Below are positions 1,825 through 60,196 of a DNA stretch of 64,000 nucleotides, piece after piece. A program made the translations under genes and the position numbers. The number at the start of each line of letters is the position of its first letter. The stretch's first letter is position 1. This DNA comes from a virus, in IMG/VR virus record IMGVR_UViG_3300025117_000050, positions 1 to 64,000 of that record. One strand, given 5' to 3'. The notes under the pieces are model-generated. The model did not search any database, had not been told where the DNA came from, and saw nothing but the letters and a program-made list of their open reading frames with translations.

Positions 1825-1853
1825 TTGCATTTATATTTTGATTGTGTTATAAT
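1825..1853 (+). promoter_or_regulatory. sigma-A-type promoter
   Basis: TTGCAT, 17-base spacer, TATAAT (1848-1853), 32 bases before the next start codon. Probably starts the 1886 gene and perhaps what follows. Confidence 0.65.
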
Positions 1854-1885: not shown

Positions 1886-2098
1886 ATGAATTTAAGCAAA
1901 ATAAAATTTAATTTAACTAATATACCAATTGCATTTTGTCCTAGTTGCGGTAAAAAATTAAAAATAATAGAAACAGATTATTTAGAATCTGAAACTATAT
2001 GTAATAATTGTAAATTAAAGTGGTTAATTATATGGGATATAGATGATAATGATAATTACGGAGTAAAAGGATTTCAATGTAATAATGAAGATCGTTAA
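1886..2098 (+). CDS. zinc-ribbon protein
   Basis: 70 residues after GAGGAGG. FCPSCGKK and CNNCKLKW form two CxxC knuckles about 20 residues apart, a classic zinc ribbon. Has its own promoter upstream and lies immediately before the structured RNA at 2117. Role unknown. Confidence 0.7.
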   Translation: MNLSKIKFNLTNIPIAFCPSCGKKLKIIETDYLESETICNNCKLKWLIIWDIDDNDNYGVKGFQCNNEDR

Positions 2099-2116
2099 TT
2101 TCAATTATAATATTGT

Positions 2117-2278
2117 ATAGCAAACGGTAAACCAGTGGGGATTATTTGATTTAGTAAGAGTCAACAGACAGGTACTCTGTTCCCAGGGAATCCATGCGAT
2201 AGATGAGAGGTGACATGGTAGAACTAAATTAGACCGTACCGTGAGTTGCTGGACGTAATCGGGTATTTTGCTATACAT
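2117..2278 (+). ncRNA. candidate structured non-coding RNA
   Basis: About 162 bases with no reading frame and clearly more G+C than everything around it. A perfect 10-bp terminal stem (2117-2126 with 2269-2278) encloses further complementary segments: CGGTA/TACCG, ATTTAGT/ACTAAAT, AACAGA/TCTGTT, CCATG/CATGG, CCAG/CTGG. A TATAAT-like box sits just upstream (2108-2113). Closed structure and composition argue for a folded RNA, transcribed + strand. I do not recognise a known class. Confidence 0.6.
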
Positions 2279-2303
2279 TAATAAATAAAGATGCTAAAAT
2301 GAT

Positions 2304-2407: not shown

Positions 2408-3094
2408 ATGAAAGCAGAATATTATTATAATGAATTAATGGATGAGAATCATAATAACGAAGGTTATGACGGATGGTATTGTAATGGTATGGTCACAATA
2501 CATAAGATTGGGAGCAATGATAAAGATGTGACATATACATTATATAGAAGTGGAAATATTATTGATAGTAATGGTAAACGTGATTATATAATTTCTGATT
2601 TAATCGGAGATTATGAACCGTATTCACCAGTACAAATTTTAAAGTGTGGATATTTATTATTTAATACCACTTCTTTTAATCAAGTAAAACACATTATAAG
2701 TAATTTACACGAGTATTTTGATTCTGAAGAATATGATTATAATCTCTTAGAAAAAGATAGGCATTTCATATGTGGTGGAAATAGTTGGGAGAATGGTTTA
2801 ACGGAAGGTTTTTCATACTATGCACCCAACGGTATAGAAGTGTCTATATGTTCAATTCCTAAATTATGCTATAAGAATTCCAGAAGAAGTAAATATGGGA
2901 AAAGATGTTTGCCATTCAATAAATCATATTCAAAAGTAAATTATGTATATGTATATTTTACAACTAATATTTTAGGACATTTGATAGATTCAGACTTAAA
3001 TTGTCTTGTAAATGAAGCGTTGACAGATTTAATTGATAATTTACCAGATTGTAAATATATTAATATGAAAATGTTTAAGTATATCTATAGTTAA
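2408..3094 (+). CDS. hypothetical protein
   Basis: 228 residues, ATAGGAGG ribosome site. Composition is that of a soluble mixed alpha/beta protein with many Tyr and Asn; Cys residues are scattered rather than paired. The leader carries the stem-loop at 2304. No family recognised. Confidence 0.7.
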   Translation: MKAEYYYNELMDENHNNEGYDGWYCNGMVTIHKIGSNDKDVTYTLYRSGNIIDSNGKRDYIISDLIGDYEPYSPVQILKCGYLLFNTTSFNQVKHIISNLHEYFDSEEYDYNLLEKDRHFICGGNSWENGLTEGFSYYAPNGIEVSICSIPKLCYKNSRRSKYGKRCLPFNKSYSKVNYVYVYFTTNILGHLIDSDLNCLVNEALTDLIDNLPDCKYINMKMFKYIYS

Positions 3095-3122: not shown

Positions 3123-3587
3123 ATGATTATTATTGAAGTTACACATGATAGATATTTTGGAAAAGAATTTGGAGATACTGGTTTACAATGCATAAATATT
3201 CCTGCATATCTAGAAAACAATAAACTTATAATTGGTCATCATGGAGAAAGTGAATTATGTTTTCCATATTACATTCCTAATTATAATGCAGAAGATTTTG
3301 AATTTTTCTGTAATCATAAATACAGGAGGGCAAAAGAATCTAATCCTCATTACATTTATAAAGGAAATGTTTATGAATTAATGGGAGTTACTGATAATAA
3401 AAAAAATATATTATGTACATTCTTAACTCCATGTAGGAAAGGTACATTTCTTTGTAAATGTAAAGACTGTGGAGAAAATTTTGTTATTGACTGTTATGAA
3501 TCTCCTTATTATTATGTTAAGGAATTATCAATGCCAATTATAAGATGCAAAAGTTGTATATCAAAAAGAAAAAATAAAAGGAGGTGA
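3123..3587 (+). CDS. hypothetical protein with C-terminal zinc ribbon
   Basis: 154 residues from the ATG at 3123, which follows GAGGGAGGAATTTATT; an ATG at 3105 lacks a site. The C-terminal 45 residues carry CKCKDCGENF and IRCKSCISK, a four-Cys zinc ribbon with a basic tail. The final codons overlap a perfect AAAAGGAGGTGAT ribosome site that leads only to a tiny frame. Confidence 0.7.
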   Translation: MIIIEVTHDRYFGKEFGDTGLQCINIPAYLENNKLIIGHHGESELCFPYYIPNYNAEDFEFFCNHKYRRAKESNPHYIYKGNVYELMGVTDNKKNILCTFLTPCRKGTFLCKCKDCGENFVIDCYESPYYYVKELSMPIIRCKSCISKRKNKRR

Positions 3588-3642
3588 TTAAAATAGTATA
3601 ATTTACAAATTAACAATATTATATTGTAAAATTGTTAATTAT

Positions 3643-3682
3643 ATTGTTACTAATATTAGTAACAATATTTTTATTTTATTAA
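3643..3682 (+). terminator. palindromic terminator
   Basis: A perfect 24-base palindrome (3643-3666) followed by ATTTTTATTTT. It separates the 3123 gene from the HNH gene leader. Confidence 0.6.
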
Positions 3683-3699
3683 AAAGGAGGTAATTATTT

Positions 3700-3714
3700 T
3701 GAATAATATTTAGT
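3700..3714 (+). other. four-codon micro-ORF (MNNI) before HNH gene
   Basis: AAAAAGGAGG followed at 8 bases by TTG AAT AAT ATT TAG. A strong ribosome site thus leads to an immediate stop 46 bases before the endonuclease start. It may be a leader peptide or the stub of an interrupted gene. Confidence 0.3.
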
Positions 3715-3759
3715 CAATAAGATTATTAACATCAATATAAGAATAAAAATATAATATAA

Positions 3760-4323
3760 ATGAGGATGAATAATATTAGAAATGAATATGTAATAAATAA
3801 AAAATCAGCGTATATGAAACTTAAAAATAAGAAAGAAGAAATATATAAAGTATTTATTGATCATGAAGATATTGAAAAAATAAAACATTATAGATGGCAT
3901 CTTGAATATTATAAAACAGCAAAATGTTATTATGTTCGCACAACTATTCATCTTGGCATGATTGATGGTAAAAATAAATCTAAATGTATACTTCTTCATT
4001 CAATGATTATGGGCGTAGAAAAGAATACAATTATTGATCATAAAAATCATAATCCATTAGATAATAGAAAAAAGAATTTAAGAATTGTTGAAGCAAGTAA
4101 TAATTCTGCTAATAGAAAAGGTGCTAATTCAAATAATAAAACTGGTGTGAGAAATGTACATTTAATTAACAGGTATGGCGGTAAACAAATTTATATGGTA
4201 CAAATTATGAGAAAAGGAGAAAGATTTAGTTGGGAATTTGAATTAAATCAATTTGATGAAGCATGTATATTTGCTGAAGAAAAGAGAAAAGAATTATTTG
4301 GAAAATATGCAGGAAATGGTTAA
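3760..4323 (+). CDS. HNH homing endonuclease with AP2-like DNA-binding domain
   Basis: 187 residues. The middle has the HNH_3 pattern LHSMIMG, IIDHKNHNPLDNRKKNLRIV (about residues 83-114), with the metal-binding DH and DNR..NLR typical of free-standing phage endonucleases. The C-terminal 60 residues (NNKTGVRNVHLINRYGG to FGKYAGNG) match an AP2-like DNA-binding fold. A close paralogue lies at 10196, ending in the same FGKYAGNG. The usual role is to cut an allele lacking the gene and copy itself in. No good ribosome site precedes the ATG at 3760. Confidence 0.85.
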   Translation: MRMNNIRNEYVINKKSAYMKLKNKKEEIYKVFIDHEDIEKIKHYRWHLEYYKTAKCYYVRTTIHLGMIDGKNKSKCILLHSMIMGVEKNTIIDHKNHNPLDNRKKNLRIVEASNNSANRKGANSNNKTGVRNVHLINRYGGKQIYMVQIMRKGERFSWEFELNQFDEACIFAEEKRKELFGKYAGNG

Positions 4324-4418
4324 TATACATATATTTGTAATTATATAAATATTTAAATAAAGAAATGATAAAATAATACATAAATACTATTTTATTACAT
4401 GATATAGAAATTAGAACA

Positions 4419-5463: not shown

Positions 5464-6666
5464 ATGATTAGAACCCCATTATCTTTAAGTGTGAAGCAAG
5501 TATGTACCATGATTAAGAAAGGTAGTATGACTTTTGATAATCCGATTCAAAGACCTCCTGGGCAATGGAATCAACAGAAGAAAAGTGATTTAATTGAATC
5601 AATTTTCAGAAGATTTATTCCTGATTTCTTTGCAGTTAAAACTAGGGAAGAAAAAGGAAACGTCTATGACGTGATCGATGGTTTGCAGAGATTCACAACT
5701 ATTTGTTCCTATCTTAACGATGAGTGGGAATTGCTAGAGATTAAACCTGTAAAAATAGAAACTACTGGTGAAATACATAATATATCAGGTTTAAAATATT
5801 CTCAATTGCCGGAAGATATACAGGATGTAATAAAAAGCCATATGTTGACTATAAGAACAATAGAATTTGAAGAAGATGAAGACGAAGAAGAACTTGTTGA
5901 AGAAATATTTTATCATCTTAACAGTGGTGTTCCGATGGCAAAAGAGCATTTAGCTCTTATCTCAGCACCTAAGAACGTACAGGAATTTTGTCATAGAATT
6001 ATAGCAGAACATGATTTATTTGTAGGAATTGCCAAATATTCAGAATCAGCAGTTAAAAAATCAGATAAGCATATGACAATTTTACAGAGTGTCTTGTTAA
6101 TATCTGGTTTACCCTATGAAAGTTTTGCAGCAAAGCACATTGAAGAAGTATTTGCTAAAAATGAAATAACAGAAGAAGTTTTAAAGCAGACAGAAAAGGC
6201 ATTTACAGACATTGCAGATACCTTTCAATCGACACATAAATTTGTAGTTAAAATCAATATACCAATTATGACCTATATGTTTTCTAATACTACAGAGGAA
6301 AATAAAATTCCTGTAAGAGAGAAATTATTGAATTATGTTAATAAAGAAATGTTACCTGGAGATAAATATAAGGCTTATACAGGTGCAGGGAATGTTAAGA
6401 AGGATAAAGTTATTAAGCGTATTAAAGGTATGTTTGAGATATGCGGAGTAGTAGAAAGACCAATAGAAGTAGTAAAACAGACTTATGAAGAGATTAATGC
6501 AGTATTACAGGAGTTTAAAAGTGAATCTGAAACTGAGACTGAAGACGATTCTACTAACGATAATGCTAATGTCAATGTACAATCTGAACTTGAATCTGAC
6601 GAAATACCAGAATTAACATTAGAAGATATACCTGACATTGAATTGGATGGCAAAGAAGTTAGTTAA
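5464..6666 (+). CDS. DUF262-family (GmrS/ParB-fold) protein
   Basis: 400 residues. The N-terminal 100 residues fit DUF262: NPIQRPPGQWNQQKKSDLIE, then IPDFFAVKT and DVIDGLQRFTTI at 69-80, the DGQQR-like NTP-binding motif of the ParB/Srx fold. DUF262 is the N-terminal domain of GmrSD-type modification-dependent restriction enzymes, but no C-terminal DUF1524 HNH domain follows. Instead there is a helical region and a very acidic tail (SETETEDDS) that may mimic DNA. A defence, anti-defence or regulatory role is inference. Confidence 0.8.
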   Translation: MIRTPLSLSVKQVCTMIKKGSMTFDNPIQRPPGQWNQQKKSDLIESIFRRFIPDFFAVKTREEKGNVYDVIDGLQRFTTICSYLNDEWELLEIKPVKIETTGEIHNISGLKYSQLPEDIQDVIKSHMLTIRTIEFEEDEDEEELVEEIFYHLNSGVPMAKEHLALISAPKNVQEFCHRIIAEHDLFVGIAKYSESAVKKSDKHMTILQSVLLISGLPYESFAAKHIEEVFAKNEITEEVLKQTEKAFTDIADTFQSTHKFVVKINIPIMTYMFSNTTEENKIPVREKLLNYVNKEMLPGDKYKAYTGAGNVKKDKVIKRIKGMFEICGVVERPIEVVKQTYEEINAVLQEFKSESETETEDDSTNDNANVNVQSELESDEIPELTLEDIPDIELDGKEVS

Positions 6667-10184: not shown

Positions 10185-10214
10185 AATGAAAGGAGGTGAT
10201 AAATATAAAAAATA
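10185..10214 (+). other. nine-codon micro-ORF (MKGGDKYKK) overlapping HNH start
   Basis: A perfect AAAAAGGAGGTGAT site leads to ATG AAA GGA GGT GAT and a stop at 10212-10214. The micro-ORF itself contains a second AAAGGAGGTGAT, which appears to serve the endonuclease frame. Suggests translational coupling. Confidence 0.4.
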
Positions 10215-10747
10215 ATTATATTATAGAAGGAGATATTGTTAAAATTGTTTTAGATACAAAACATGGAAAATTTTATGCATTAATAGATTTAGAAGACTTT
10301 GATAAGGCTAACAATTGTGAAAATAAATGGTGTTTACGTTCATTAAAACATCAATACGCTCAACAAATGAAAGTAATAGGCAAGGAAGGGAATAGAAGTA
10401 AATATACTACTATTAAATTACATAATATTATAATAGATTGTCCAGAAGGGATGCGAGTAGATCATATTAATCATAATACATTAGATAATCGAAAACAAAA
10501 CTTAAGGATTATAGAACATAAAAATAATATTACACATCGAAAAGGTGCTAATTCTAATAGTAAAACTGGTGTTAGAAATGTTAATCTAGTAACTAGATAT
10601 AGTGGAGAACAAGAATATTGGGTACAATTAATGAAAGATGGTAAAAGATTTAAATGGGAATTTCCACTAGAACAATTTAATGAAGCATGTATTTTTGCAG
10701 AACAAAAACGTCAAGAAATATTTGGCAAATATGCAGGGAATGGTTAA
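10196..10747 (+). CDS. HNH homing endonuclease with AP2-like domain
   Basis: 183 residues. HNH_3 pattern LHNIIIDCPEGMRVDHINHN then LDNRKQNLRII, and a C-terminal AP2-like region (SKTGVRNVNLVTRYSGEQE to FGKYAGNG). Close paralogue of the 3760 protein, indicating movement of the same element within the genome. The start is unclear: the GTG at 10196 lies inside the second ribosome site, and an ATA a few bases later is better spaced. Confidence 0.85.
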   Translation: MINIKNNYIIEGDIVKIVLDTKHGKFYALIDLEDFDKANNCENKWCLRSLKHQYAQQMKVIGKEGNRSKYTTIKLHNIIIDCPEGMRVDHINHNTLDNRKQNLRIIEHKNNITHRKGANSNSKTGVRNVNLVTRYSGEQEYWVQLMKDGKRFKWEFPLEQFNEACIFAEQKRQEIFGKYAGNG

Positions 10748-40184: not shown

Positions 40185-41543
40185 TTGTTAGTTAAAAATC
40201 AAAAAGTTAAAGTTAAATGGAATGGAGCACATAGAAAATATTATGAAGAAAAAGGTTATCCATTTACTAATTATGGTGATGAATTAGAGATAGACATAAA
40301 AGATTTAGCACCAAAAAGTCAAAAATATGTTTTAGTTAGTTGTGATTATTGCGGTATACCATTTATGAGGAGGTATTGTAATTACAATACAAGAAAAGAA
40401 AAATACGGTAAAGATGATAAAGATTGTTGTGATGATTGCAGAGTACATAAAAGAGAAGAAACATGTTTAGATAAATATGGTTTTAAAAATGCTGTTCAAG
40501 TAGAAGAAATACAAAATAAAATAAAAGAAACTATTAAGGAAAAATATGGAGTAGAATATATATCTCAAGTAGAAGAAATTAAAAATAAAAAGAAACAAAC
40601 TTGTTTAGATAGATATGGAGTAGAATATACCTTGCAAGTTCCAGAGATTAGAGAAATGATTATAGAAACTAATATAAATAAATATGGAGTTGAAAATCCA
40701 TTTCAAAATGAAGAAATTAAAGAAAAAATCAGACAAGTCAATATGGATAAATATGGTGTAGAATATCCAATGCAATTACCTGAAATAAGAGAAAAAAGTC
40801 AAGAAACAACTTTTAAAAATCTTGGTGTTAAATATGCTATGCAATCTTATAAAACACAAGAAAAAAATAAACAATCTATTCAAGATAAATACGGATATAC
40901 AAATATTTTTCAGATACCAGAGATAAAAGAAAAAATAAAGAAAATTAATATTAAAAAATATGGAGCGGAAAATCCTTTAAATAATAAAGAAATTAGAGAA
41001 AAAGCTAATAAAACTATAAAAGATAAATATGGTGTTGATAATGTTTCACAGAATCCAGAAATACAAGCAAAAATTAGACGTTCATTTTATAAAAATGGTA
41101 CTACTCCTACTTCAATTCAACAAAGATATATTTGTTTTTTAGTAAACGGTAAATTAAATTTTCCTATTGGAAGAACAAATGCAGATATATTGATAAATAA
41201 TAATATAATTATTGAATATGATGGTGGTGGACATAATCTAAGTGTAAAAATAGGAAATATAACGCAAGATCAATTTAATAGAAAAGAAATTAAAAAATAT
41301 TATTTTTTAAAAAGTAAAGGATATAAGATTATTAGAATTGTATCTGCTAAAGATAATTTACCTAAAGAAGAGAAAAGATTAATTGATGCTATAAATATAG
41401 CAATTGATTATTTAAATCAAAATCATTCTTGGTTTGAAATAAATATTGATGATGGAAAATTAAGATGTATTTGTTATGAAAAAGATTATAATTTTGGAGA
41501 ATTAAGAAGAGGAACAAAAGAAAATTTAGCTATAAATACATAA
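40185..41543 (+). CDS. putative homing endonuclease with repeats (DUF7487-like)
   Basis: 452 residues from TTG 40185 after AAAGGAGG. N-terminal zinc cluster CDYCGIPF and CCDDC. Then about eight repeats of 27-28 residues with the core KYGVE(Y/N)..Q..EI..KI (residues about 88-300), of the sort that reads DNA. The C-terminus (INNNIIIEYDGGGHN, then KKYYFLKSKGYKIIRI) resembles an EDxHD/Vsr-like nuclease: E-Y-D-G-G-H and a following strand. Likely a mobile endonuclease inserted between the MazF-like and DUF5317 genes. Confidence 0.7.
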   Translation: MLVKNQKVKVKWNGAHRKYYEEKGYPFTNYGDELEIDIKDLAPKSQKYVLVSCDYCGIPFMRRYCNYNTRKEKYGKDDKDCCDDCRVHKREETCLDKYGFKNAVQVEEIQNKIKETIKEKYGVEYISQVEEIKNKKKQTCLDRYGVEYTLQVPEIREMIIETNINKYGVENPFQNEEIKEKIRQVNMDKYGVEYPMQLPEIREKSQETTFKNLGVKYAMQSYKTQEKNKQSIQDKYGYTNIFQIPEIKEKIKKINIKKYGAENPLNNKEIREKANKTIKDKYGVDNVSQNPEIQAKIRRSFYKNGTTPTSIQQRYICFLVNGKLNFPIGRTNADILINNNIIIEYDGGGHNLSVKIGNITQDQFNRKEIKKYYFLKSKGYKIIRIVSAKDNLPKEEKRLIDAINIAIDYLNQNHSWFEINIDDGKLRCICYEKDYNFGELRRGTKENLAINT

Positions 41544-43332: not shown

Positions 43333-44229
43333 ATGTCAATATTATTTGGTAAGAAGAATGTATTAAAACCTACTTCTACAAATTCTATTTCTGAAATAAC
43401 AAAGAAAGAGTTAGCTTACAATATAAGAGTTGCCGTAGGTCATCGAAGTATTACTCAAGTCTGTAATATATTAAAAATGGTCGATCCAAAACCATTAGTT
43501 GACTTAATAAAAATGAATTATAATGAATTACCTGATAGACAATTACTTAGAAAAATTGCATCTGCAAGCGAAGGTAGGGTTTCTTATCAAAACCTTTATT
43601 CTGTCTGCGGTTATTCCGAATTTGATTCTGAAGAAGATCGTAGTTGGGCAAAGTGGGTTCCTGAACGTGGTAGTTGTTATATGATTGATTTAGGATGGAA
43701 TATGGATAGTGAGCAAAATTCTGTGCGTCCGGCAATAGTGATGCAAAACAACAAAGGCAATCAATACTCAGGAACAACCGTTATTATCCCTATATCTTCT
43801 CGTTCTAAAAAATTTTCTTCACAGATTCATGTATTATTAGAAAAAGAATTAGGATTTTTACGGGAATGTCAATGTTTTCCAGAACAAATTCGCTGTGTTT
43901 CAAAAAGGAGGTTCTTCTATAATTCTGTACCTTATAAAATCACTACTTTACCAGAACATAAATTATTAGAAATCAAAAACGCACTTGAGTTTGAACTAGG
44001 TTTTGAGCCTTTATATTTTGACGAAGAAAAAATATTTAAATTAATTTCTCATATTCGTTCTTTAGAAAATAATATTAAAATCAAAAAATCACATAATCTA
44101 ATTGATATATTAAATCAAAAAATGGATGATCTAAAAGAATACTGTTCAAAATATCATAAGAATCACAAGATTATCTTACAAGAATACGATAGAATCAACA
44201 ATTGCGGTTACAATGCAGTATCCATATAA
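43333..44229 (+). CDS. HTH-MazF fusion protein
   Basis: 298 residues after GAGGAGTGATTAATA. Residues 20-97 look like an XRE-type helical DNA-binding/repressor end (LAYNIRVAVGHRSITQVCNI, then LLRKIASASEGRVSYQNLYS). Residues 108-225 are MazF-like: WVPERGSCYMIDLG, SVRPAIVMQNN (Arg132), SGTTVIIPISS, QIHVLL, EQIRCVSKRR, LEIKNALEFELGF. The last 65 residues form a coiled coil. Between agrD and agrB, it is a candidate output of the circuit: RNA cleavage and DNA binding in one chain. C-ending codons are more frequent than in flanking genes. Confidence 0.8.
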   Translation: MSILFGKKNVLKPTSTNSISEITKKELAYNIRVAVGHRSITQVCNILKMVDPKPLVDLIKMNYNELPDRQLLRKIASASEGRVSYQNLYSVCGYSEFDSEEDRSWAKWVPERGSCYMIDLGWNMDSEQNSVRPAIVMQNNKGNQYSGTTVIIPISSRSKKFSSQIHVLLEKELGFLRECQCFPEQIRCVSKRRFFYNSVPYKITTLPEHKLLEIKNALEFELGFEPLYFDEEKIFKLISHIRSLENNIKIKKSHNLIDILNQKMDDLKEYCSKYHKNHKIILQEYDRINNCGYNAVSI

Positions 44230-44291: not shown

Positions 44292-44633
44292 ATGATAATC
44301 TTTGATGAAAAACAATTAAAATACTTATTTAATAAATACAAAATAAGATATAAAATATTTGAAGAAACAAATATTCTACTTATAGATAGTGGTCTTGATG
44401 AGTGGTTAATCAAGTATCAACATGGAAGAGATCAACCATATTGCCTTATGCACAAAAATAAATTAAAACAAACTAAAAGGTTCCATGTGCAGAGATGGTT
44501 GTCAAATTTTTATCAATCACTTGATAGTCTATTGTCACATAAAAATATTTTTGTAGATCATTCAAGTTCAAAAAATACATATAAAAAATATAGAAATAAT
44601 AAAATAAATAATAAAAGGAGAAAAAGTTGTTAA
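44292..44633 (+). CDS. hypothetical basic protein in Agr-like cluster
   Basis: 113 residues, AAAGGAGATCAATTAAA site. Aromatic and basic with a disordered Lys/Asn tail; no HTH or catalytic motif recognised. Overlaps the AgrB start by 7 bases, so the two are translationally coupled. Confidence 0.6.
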   Translation: MIIFDEKQLKYLFNKYKIRYKIFEETNILLIDSGLDEWLIKYQHGRDQPYCLMHKNKLKQTKRFHVQRWLSNFYQSLDSLLSHKNIFVDHSSSKNTYKKYRNNKINNKRRKSC

Positions 44634-45421
44634 AATATATAAAAAACTACATAATAACATTTCGTTATATCAAACTATTCTCATATTGGAATGCAAGATA
44701 TTTGCATAACAAACTAAAAGAAGAAAGAATTAGAGAATCACAAAACTTACATAATCCACATAAAGAAAAACATAAATATTATTATATATTGCAAATGATA
44801 ATTAAAAAATTATTTCAAATAATTAATAAAATAATTTCTTTAACTCCATTAGGAAGAAAACTATCATCGTACATAACTGAAAAATATTCACAATATAAAC
44901 AGAAAGAGAAAAAACCTAAAAAAATATACAACAGATACACCTACTATTATGGTCTTCAAATAATCATCGGAGGCATAAATAAATTCCTTCTACTAATCAT
45001 ACCAGGCTTACTATTTAACATCTTGCCGCAACTATTACTAACCACGTTATCATTTGTATCACTAAGAATATGGACTGGTGGTCTGCACTACAATTCTTAT
45101 ACCAAATGCAGCTACATATCACTATTATCCTTCACACTCACAGCACTACTATCAAAATACATCATATTAAATCAATTTATCACTATGTCAATATTTCTAT
45201 CTGTATTTATATTAATTTTAATCTATGCCCCTGTAGAACATCCAAACAGACCAATAAAAGAAAAAGAAAAAATTAAATACAAATTAATCGCATTATTTGT
45301 ATTAAGCACCTTAACTATTATCTATATGTTTACAAATAATGTTATTATCTGTAATTCTATTATATATGGGATATTATTAGCAGGTATAATTATGTTACCA
45401 ATTATAAATAAACTAAGATAA
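44627..45421 (+). CDS. agrB: AgrB-like peptide-processing membrane protease
   Basis: 264 residues from TTG 44627 (AAAGGAGAAAAAG). Residues about 100-264 are AgrB: YYYGLQIIIGGINKFLLLII, SLRIWTGGLHYNSYTKCSYI with catalytic His154 and Cys161 seven residues apart as in known AgrB, then YAPVEHPNRPI and two further spans. The first 95 residues are an unusual Lys-rich extension compared with the usual 190-210-residue protein. AgrB cleaves AgrD C-terminally and forms the ring in the membrane. Confidence 0.88.
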   Translation: MLKYIKNYIITFRYIKLFSYWNARYLHNKLKEERIRESQNLHNPHKEKHKYYYILQMIIKKLFQIINKIISLTPLGRKLSSYITEKYSQYKQKEKKPKKIYNRYTYYYGLQIIIGGINKFLLLIIPGLLFNILPQLLLTTLSFVSLRIWTGGLHYNSYTKCSYISLLSFTLTALLSKYIILNQFITMSIFLSVFILILIYAPVEHPNRPIKEKEKIKYKLIALFVLSTLTIIYMFTNNVIICNSIIYGILLAGIIMLPIINKLR

Positions 45422-54436: not shown

Positions 54437-54700
54437 ATGAATGCAATTAAAGCAAGAATATTATTAGAACAAATAAAACCAACTCATCTAAATAATAAAA
54501 ATATGACAGAAACAATTAACCTAGCAATTCAAGCATTAAATAAACAAATACCAACAAGTCCAAAAATACAATCTTATTGCCCTGCGCTATGTCCTTCGTG
54601 TGGTAATGAATTGAGTGAAGATTTAGATGATGGGTATTATAAACATTATTATGGTTTAAGTATTTGCGAGTGTGGACAAAAATTGAAATGGAGTGATTAA
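54437..54700 (+). CDS. phage zinc-ribbon protein
   Basis: 87 residues after AAGGAGG. Helix NMTETINLAIQALNKQIPTS then CPALCPSCGNELSED and CECGQKLKW. This helix plus ribbon layout is common in clostridial phages. Confidence 0.65.
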   Translation: MNAIKARILLEQIKPTHLNNKNMTETINLAIQALNKQIPTSPKIQSYCPALCPSCGNELSEDLDDGYYKHYYGLSICECGQKLKWSD

Positions 54701-54721: not shown

Positions 54722-54889
54722 ATGACTGATGAATTATATGATGATTTAAAATTATTCGTATTAGTTAGAGATTATCTTAAAAAAGATAGTCAAAAATGTA
54801 TTAGAAATATTGGTGCATGTAACGAATGTGGTTTATGTTGGATGAGTGAAGATGAAATATTTTATCTTTTAGGGTATTTTAATGCTTGA
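54722..54889 (+). CDS. small protein with CNECGLCWM motif
   Basis: 55 residues, TTAGGAGG site. Paralogue of the 35600 protein by the shared C(D/N)ECGLCWM(N/S)E(E/D)EI. The end overlaps the next -35 box. Confidence 0.6.
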   Translation: MTDELYDDLKLFVLVRDYLKKDSQKCIRNIGACNECGLCWMSEDEIFYLLGYFNA

Positions 54890-54914
54890 CAAATTAACAA
54901 AATATAAATATAAT
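54886..54914 (+). promoter_or_regulatory. strong promoter
   Basis: TTGACA, 17 bases, TATAAT, overlapping the preceding stop codon. Confidence 0.75.
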
Positions 54915-54941
54915 AATAAACAAAAGAAGGAGTAAATAAAT

Positions 54942-55355: not shown

Positions 55356-55634
55356 ATGGATAATATAATCAATAATTTTATTTGTAGTAAGTGTAATGGA
55401 ACATCTGTATTTATTAAAAAGACTAATACACAAACAGGTTTGTATTGTTCTAAATGTGGTAAGTGGATTAAATGGTTAGGAAAAGAAGAAATTAGGTTAT
55501 ATGAAAGACAATTGGAAATAGACAAAATGAAGTCTGAAGTAGTTATGGAAGTAGAAGAACCTGAAATATAAATTAGTTTATCGCAATTTAGTAATGAAGA
55601 ATTGATTGATGAAATTAGAAAAAGAATGAATTAA
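55356..55634 (+). pseudogene. zinc-ribbon protein with in-frame TAA
   Basis: 71 codons with CSKCNGTSVF and YCSKCGKW, then TAA at 55569-55571 (EEPEI*ISLSQFSNEELID), then 20 more coding-like codons. May be a 71-residue protein or a 92-residue one with a CAA-to-TAA change. Confidence 0.5.
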
Positions 55635-59885: not shown

Positions 59886-59944
59886 GTTGTTATCAATCTT
59901 ATCTTTGGTTTTAATTTAATAAACAAAAAAAGGAGAAAATGAAT

Positions 59945-60196
59945 ATGTATAAAATTAAAATAGAAAATAATAATAATTCTAAAAAAATAGAAATACCAGA
60001 AACACCATTCTTTCTATCTCATTGTGATGGTAAAAGTTATTATATTGTTTCAAAAAATTCAGATAAAGATAGATATTTATTAACTGCTGTTGACAATGGA
60101 ATTACATATGATAATAATTATGTAGGAAAACAAGTTTATAATAATTTAAATAATGGCACTTGGATATTGCATGAATCTAAAATTGTAATAATTTAA
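59945..60196 (+). CDS. hypothetical protein
   Basis: 83 residues; ATG 59945 is better spaced from AAAAGGAG than ATG 59939. Beta-rich, Asn-rich. No family recognised. Confidence 0.55.
   Translation: MYKIKIENNNNSKKIEIPETPFFLSHCDGKSYYIVSKNSDKDRYLLTAVDNGITYDNNYVGKQVYNNLNNGTWILHESKIVII

What the first reader, a model, noticed from the sequence alone, without database searches (positions are those of the whole stretch)
2117..2278. Compact GC-rich RNA of unknown class
A perfect 10-bp terminal stem, several nested or crossing helices, a TATAAT-like box just upstream and composition unlike the flanks. No coding frame. I cannot match it to a named RNA family.
Basis: seen in the sequence. Interest (0 to 1): 0.75.

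Follow-up and report, generated by a model that had tools for sequence, protein, structure and literature searches.

The report
Orphan noncoding RNA in phage cassette
A bacterial virus carries a 164-base stretch that does not code for protein, is unusually GC-rich and changes far less than its neighbours between two related viruses, so it is probably a structured RNA of no catalogued family, though its fold and role are unproven.

Summary
The island is real. Window 2114-2277 has perfect 11-bp terminal arms (2114-2124/2267-2277) and 43% GC against 24.9% for the window; it is the most GC-rich 162-nt stretch of the 64 kb. Rfam has nothing for it, even with permissive filters. One relative was found, in G011, a 106-kb phage record. 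There 158 of 164 bases are identical, while the adjoining 70-codon zinc-ribbon-like gene (ORF70) differs at 32% of synonymous sites (Fisher p = 6.6e-6). ORF70 and the RNA form one 407-bp block with unrelated flanks, placed about 53 kb apart on otherwise collinear backbones. Best reading: a constrained noncoding RNA in the 3' part of the ORF70 transcript, moved with it as a promoterless cassette. Fold and function stay open. No third homologue turned up in 50,697 phage records or 1,575 genome searches.

The parts
2114..2277 (+). candidate structured noncoding RNA (whole element between the outer ends of the arms)
   Evidence: GC peak, 158/164 identical in G011 against 32% synonymous divergence of ORF70
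2114..2124 (+). 5' arm of the terminal stem, TGTATAGCAAA
   Evidence: perfect complement of 2267-2277
2267..2277 (+). 3' arm of the terminal stem, TTTGCTATACA
2136..2142 (+). possible helix strand TGGGGAT, partner 2179-2185 (GTTCCCA)
   Evidence: helix list; unvaried in two sequences; not proven
2145..2155 (+). possible long-range strand TTTGATTTAGT, 11 pairs with 2223-2233 (ACTAAATTAGA); crosses the previous helix
   Evidence: not proven
2214..2220 (+). possible helix strand CATGGTA, partner 2237-2243 (TACCGTG); competes with ACGGTA 2124-2129 for the same partner
   Evidence: not proven
1886..2098 (+). ORF70, zinc-ribbon-like protein of 70 aa, conserved together with the RNA
   Evidence: weak Pfam zinc-ribbon matches below cut-offs, beta-rich model with mean pLDDT 75.6 from one sequence, 11 synonymous against 2 nonsynonymous changes
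1825..1853 (+). possible promoter of ORF70 and RNA: TTGCAT-17-TATAAT with TG before the -10
   Evidence: read, not listed by the scan; G011 has TTGACA-17-TATAAT upstream of its ORF70
1886..2292 (+). whole block shared with G011 (101281-101697, minus strand); flanks unrelated

Best explanation
The element is a compact noncoding RNA of a SPbeta-like phage, probably of Clostridia. It is transcribed from the plus strand as the 3' part of the ORF70 message, from the promoter upstream of ORF70, and its ends are closed by the 11-bp stem, which would protect or help excise it. Its sequence is held by selection; the interior probably folds through GC-rich helices, perhaps with crossing pairs. It travels with ORF70 as a promoterless cassette that recombination has placed at different sites in two phages. 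It probably acts in trans or as a binding platform, perhaps for the ORF70 protein. Shown: arms, GC peak, low divergence between two phages, linkage to ORF70, change of place. Inferred: transcription, fold, excision, any partner.
For: RNA 6/164 changed against 11 of 34.8 synonymous sites in ORF70 and pooled synonymous divergence 0.287 over 14 shared ORFs; 3.7% against 10.4% in other shared non-ORF sequence, p = 0.005. The only non-ORF GC islands in the two phages are the two copies and a stretch at a group I intron. Minus-strand frame broken in the relative. Plus strand folds better than minus (-43.1 against -33.9 kcal/mol). Shared block begins at the ORF70 start codon and ends 15 nt after the arm, and the downstream genes differ, so the RNA belongs with ORF70 and not with what follows.
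Against: Only two sequences; no covariation possible. Fold stability not significant. The RNA is not significantly more conserved than ORF70 as a whole (p = 0.35); the contrast rests on synonymous sites. The phages are mosaic and one shared ORF has zero synonymous changes (59939-60196), so a recent exchange of the RNA alone could mimic constraint. No terminator-like site follows. ORF70 is frameshifted in the relative (may be an assembly error), which weakens the RNA-protein pair idea. No expression data.
Confidence: 0.5

Rival explanations
1. A 3'-UTR element of ORF70 only: a fold that stabilises the ORF70 message, ends it, or controls it in cis, without an independent RNA product.
For: Linked to the 3' side of ORF70 in both phages, with different downstream genes. 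Structured 3'-UTR elements in bacteria have been proposed (L17 downstream element, PMC2864571, passage seen).
Against: No terminator-like tail; 164 nt of near-invariant sequence is much for a simple stabiliser; RNA intact where ORF70 is frameshifted.
Confidence: 0.22
2. A DNA element: a recombination, replication or protein-binding site with terminal inverted repeats, or a miniature mobile element.
For: Perfect inverted ends, position at the end of a block that changed place.
Against: Single copy in each phage; found with ORF70, not alone; no clean flanking target duplication seen by eye; conservation covers the whole interior and the plus strand folds better.
Confidence: 0.15
3. A recently exchanged foreign stretch (degenerate RNA gene, intron scrap or other insert) with no present function; low divergence reflects recent transfer.
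For: Composition unlike the rest of the phage; mosaic genomes with some modules nearly identical.
Against: It shares its block with ORF70, which is old enough for 32% synonymous divergence; no Rfam match to intron, tRNA or rRNA.
Confidence: 0.1
4. A minus-strand protein gene of 57 codons.
For: The frame 2105-2278 spans the whole element.
Against: A stop closes it in the relative; no Pfam match; no ribosome-binding site seen upstream by eye.
Confidence: 0.03

Closest known systems
Phage or plasmid structured RNAs of unknown role (GOLLD, ROOL; PMC12286853 seen in search listing only)
   Same: noncoding, structured, phage-associated (recalled), role unknown
   Different: those are several hundred bases with deep covariation (recalled); this is 164 nt, two members, and no Rfam match
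L17 downstream element (RF01708; passages of PMC2864571 seen)
   Same: noncoding element in a 3' UTR, not tied to the downstream gene
   Different: different gene, sequence and host; no Rfam match
phi29-type packaging RNA (recalled)
   Same: of similar length, ends paired, phage-borne (recalled)
   Different: no Rfam match; phage is SPbeta-like by RecJ, not a small podovirus
Retron msr-msd RNA (recalled)
   Same: inverted-repeat ends, similar length
   Different: no reverse-transcriptase-like frame found in either phage; no Rfam match
Integron gene cassette, ORF plus attC (recalled)
   Same: promoterless ORF followed by a site with inverted ends, found at different places
   Different: no attC-type core seen at the ends by eye; attC model and integrase not tested

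Membership tests
Any Rfam 15 family | score at or near the gathering threshold | tested here: not met
   0 hits at gathering; permissive scans: two snoRNA chance hits outside the element, none for the relative, none in the window at E 0.01. Positive control: permissive mode found a group I intron in L003 that the gathering mode missed
tRNA / tmRNA | ARAGORN hit | tested here: not met
   0 genes in the window
Group I intron | match to Intron_gpI | tested here: not met
   no match at E<=10, although the phage has a true one
Retron | reverse transcriptase gene | tested here: not met
   five frames of 150 or more residues with the [YF][AVMI]DD motif listed over both phages, none RT-like by eye
Structured RNA in general | covarying base pairs | tested here: inconclusive
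   two sequences, none of 36 pairs varies
Structured RNA in general | folding energy beyond shuffles | tested here: inconclusive
   z -0.44, -1.58, -1.74
Structured RNA in general | transcript | not testable with these tools
   no RNA-seq
Protein-coding gene | open frame conserved in a relative | tested here: not met
   stop in the minus frame of the relative
Integron attC / cassette | attC core sites and integrase | not tested
   recalled only

The most novel reading that the evidence does not exclude
ORF70 and the RNA are a two-part ribonucleoprotein cassette of a new kind: a zinc-ribbon protein and its cognate RNA that phages exchange as one promoterless unit, for example to control or decoy a host factor.
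Probability: 0.15. Interest if true: 0.7.

Novelty: new member of a known kind. Interest (0 to 1): 0.42.

Why it matters
If real, it is an uncatalogued phage noncoding RNA that is inherited with one small protein gene, and the pair gives a small, testable system. It also suggests that, in AT-rich phages, non-ORF GC islands point to RNA genes: here they gave only a group I intron stretch and this element.

Tried and rejected
Known families: Rfam in both modes, ARAGORN. Cis-regulator of the downstream gene: rejected because downstream genes differ in the two phages. Own promoter at 2106-2111: weakened, box not conserved. Minus-strand protein: rejected. Retron: no reverse transcriptase. Defence partner next door: no PADLOC match for ORF70 or the two ORFs on either side of it and the RNA. 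Paralogues: none in the window or in L002, L003, L034-L039 apart from the G011 copy.

Searches for more relatives that led nowhere: neighbour proteins in IMG/VR (none); one search used a wrong gap (100-130; true gap 141) and could not have matched the element itself; the pattern gave 13 stretches, of which 12 were chance and one was L014; one search gave L014 only; ORF70 in IMG/VR gave only the G011 copy and in phages nothing; phages and plasmids by blastn gave only short chance hits; genome pattern nothing. Covariance model R1: 1 of 12 records (G011), 1 of 397 genomes at E 0.5, taken as chance and not followed up, 0 of 392, 0 of 391, 0 of 7, 0 of 388; the genome sets overlap somewhat. R1 rests on two near-identical sequences, and searches over 40 genomes use stricter filters. 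Sensitivity check: blastn found random-substitution copies in 59 of 60 trials at 20% divergence and 47 of 60 at 25%; the two exact patterns tested survived in at most 9 of 60 at 10% divergence.

Structure: the best pairing depends on the helix penalty. With a high penalty, four helices and 0 of 6 substitutions in 72 paired of 167 positions (p = 0.03); with lower penalties, seven helices and 4 of 6 substitutions in paired positions (p = 0.77), so neither is established. The hairpin 2163-2168/2176-2181 loses one pair in the relative.

Full report
What the sequence is. The window is the first 64 kb of a 96,701-base virus record. Its RecJ-like protein is closest to SPbeta-group Bacillus phages among the rows listed (34-37% identity), and the record also carries DNA polymerase III alpha, RecD-like helicase, NAD-ligase and primase genes by my reading. 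The only bacterial genome with a relative of its polymerase, from 20 stretches that matched a pattern, is an uncultured Clostridiaceae bin (48% identity), so a clostridial host is likely but inferred.

The observation. Between ORF70 (1886-2098) and the next gene (2408-3094) lie 309 bases without a plus-strand gene. The arms alone are not rare: 24 perfect inverted repeats of at least 11 bp at 60-250 nt occur in the window, 5 with three or more GC pairs. What is unusual is that the GC peak and the arms coincide. In 205,031 bases of the two phages (2,000 bases counted twice) 16 islands reach 40% GC over 120 nt; 13 lie in ORFs, and the other 3 are this element, its copy in the relative and a stretch that overlaps a group I intron.

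Folding. Allowing crossing helices gives z -1.74 with 4 of 60 shuffles as good. The helix list holds several mutually exclusive choices: ACGGTA 2124-2129 and CATGGTA 2214-2220 compete for TACCGT at 2237-2242. The 11-pair helix 2145-2155/2223-2233 crosses 2136-2142/2179-2185. The fold is therefore open.

The relative. One exact 18-base pattern found one IMG/VR record, G011 (106,330 bases). Its element differs at 6 of 164 positions, all transitions. The shared block runs from the ORF70 start codon to 15 nt after the 3' arm (1886-2292); both flanks align at background level (48% and 50%). G011 is otherwise collinear, in reverse, with record positions from 49,575 onward, yet the block lies in G011 between segments matching 54,536-54,691 and 55,356-55,629. 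In that place the window has a promoter like that of G011 followed by a different gene of 128 codons. So ORF70 and the RNA appear to have moved as one unit, without their promoter.

Selection. In ORF70, 11 changes are synonymous and 2 are not (69 codons, the gapped one dropped): 32% of synonymous sites against 1.2% of nonsynonymous ones. The RNA, at 3.7%, lies far below the synonymous level (Fisher p = 6.6e-6) and below other shared non-ORF sequence (98 of 941, p = 0.005; that baseline is biased towards similar sequence because blastn chose it). Against this, the RNA is not significantly more conserved than ORF70 as a whole (p = 0.35), and mosaic exchange could lower its divergence: in 14 shared ORFs synonymous divergence ranges from 0 to 0.52. 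ORF70 is frameshifted in G011 in a run of A, and a 12-nt insertion precedes the RNA there.

Expression. Upstream of ORF70 the window has TTGCAT-17-TATAAT with a TG before it (read) and G011 a full-consensus TTGACA-17-TATAAT. This favours one transcript with the RNA at its 3' side. No terminator-like site was listed near it in either.

What it is not. No Rfam family, and the permissive mode is shown to work by a group I intron in L003 at 55.3 bits, which the faster gathering mode missed. No tRNA or tmRNA. No minus-strand protein. No retron. No known defence partner next to it.

How it may work. The most economical mechanism is an RNA carried in the 3' part of the ORF70 message, ends locked by the arms, perhaps cut out by a host double-strand-specific nuclease, and acting in trans or as a scaffold. 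All of this is inference. Linkage with ORF70 suggests, but does not show, that the protein is its partner; the frameshift in G011 speaks against it unless it is an assembly error.

Novelty. Literature seen: search listings, and passages of PMC2864571; none described this element. That is a thin search. I rate it as an additional unclassified phage noncoding RNA candidate, not a new category, because class-defining evidence is missing.

Noticed in passing
L003:4410-4648 (record position about 86410-86648): Group I intron (55.3 bits, gathering score 50) behind a homing-endonuclease-like ORF (3523-4371) that follows a DnaB-like gene with an intein-like insert (my reading); the gathering-mode Rfam scan missed it.
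   Followed up: partly
window 44627-45421: AgrB (Pfam E 9e-37) in a phage: part of a peptide quorum-sensing system.
   Followed up: partly
window 43333-44229: PemK/MazF-like toxin domain (Pfam E 3e-17) close to AgrB, in one of the few GC-rich coding stretches.
   Followed up: partly
window 3760-4323 and 10196-10747; L014 361-921: Family of HNH endonucleases sharing a similar 3' part at different places (77% over 290 nt in the window), suggesting mobile genes in these phages.
   Followed up: no
window 40469-41042: Eight repeats at 69-nt spacing inside a 452-aa ORF with DUF7487 (three stretches).
   Followed up: no
window 5464-6666: GmrSD_N/DUF262-type protein, best PADLOC match NsnA (E 1e-28).
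   Followed up: no
window 54880-54930 and L014 4395-4340: A similar strong promoter stands before different genes in the two phages, as if promoters were fixed docking places for exchanged genes.
   Followed up: partly
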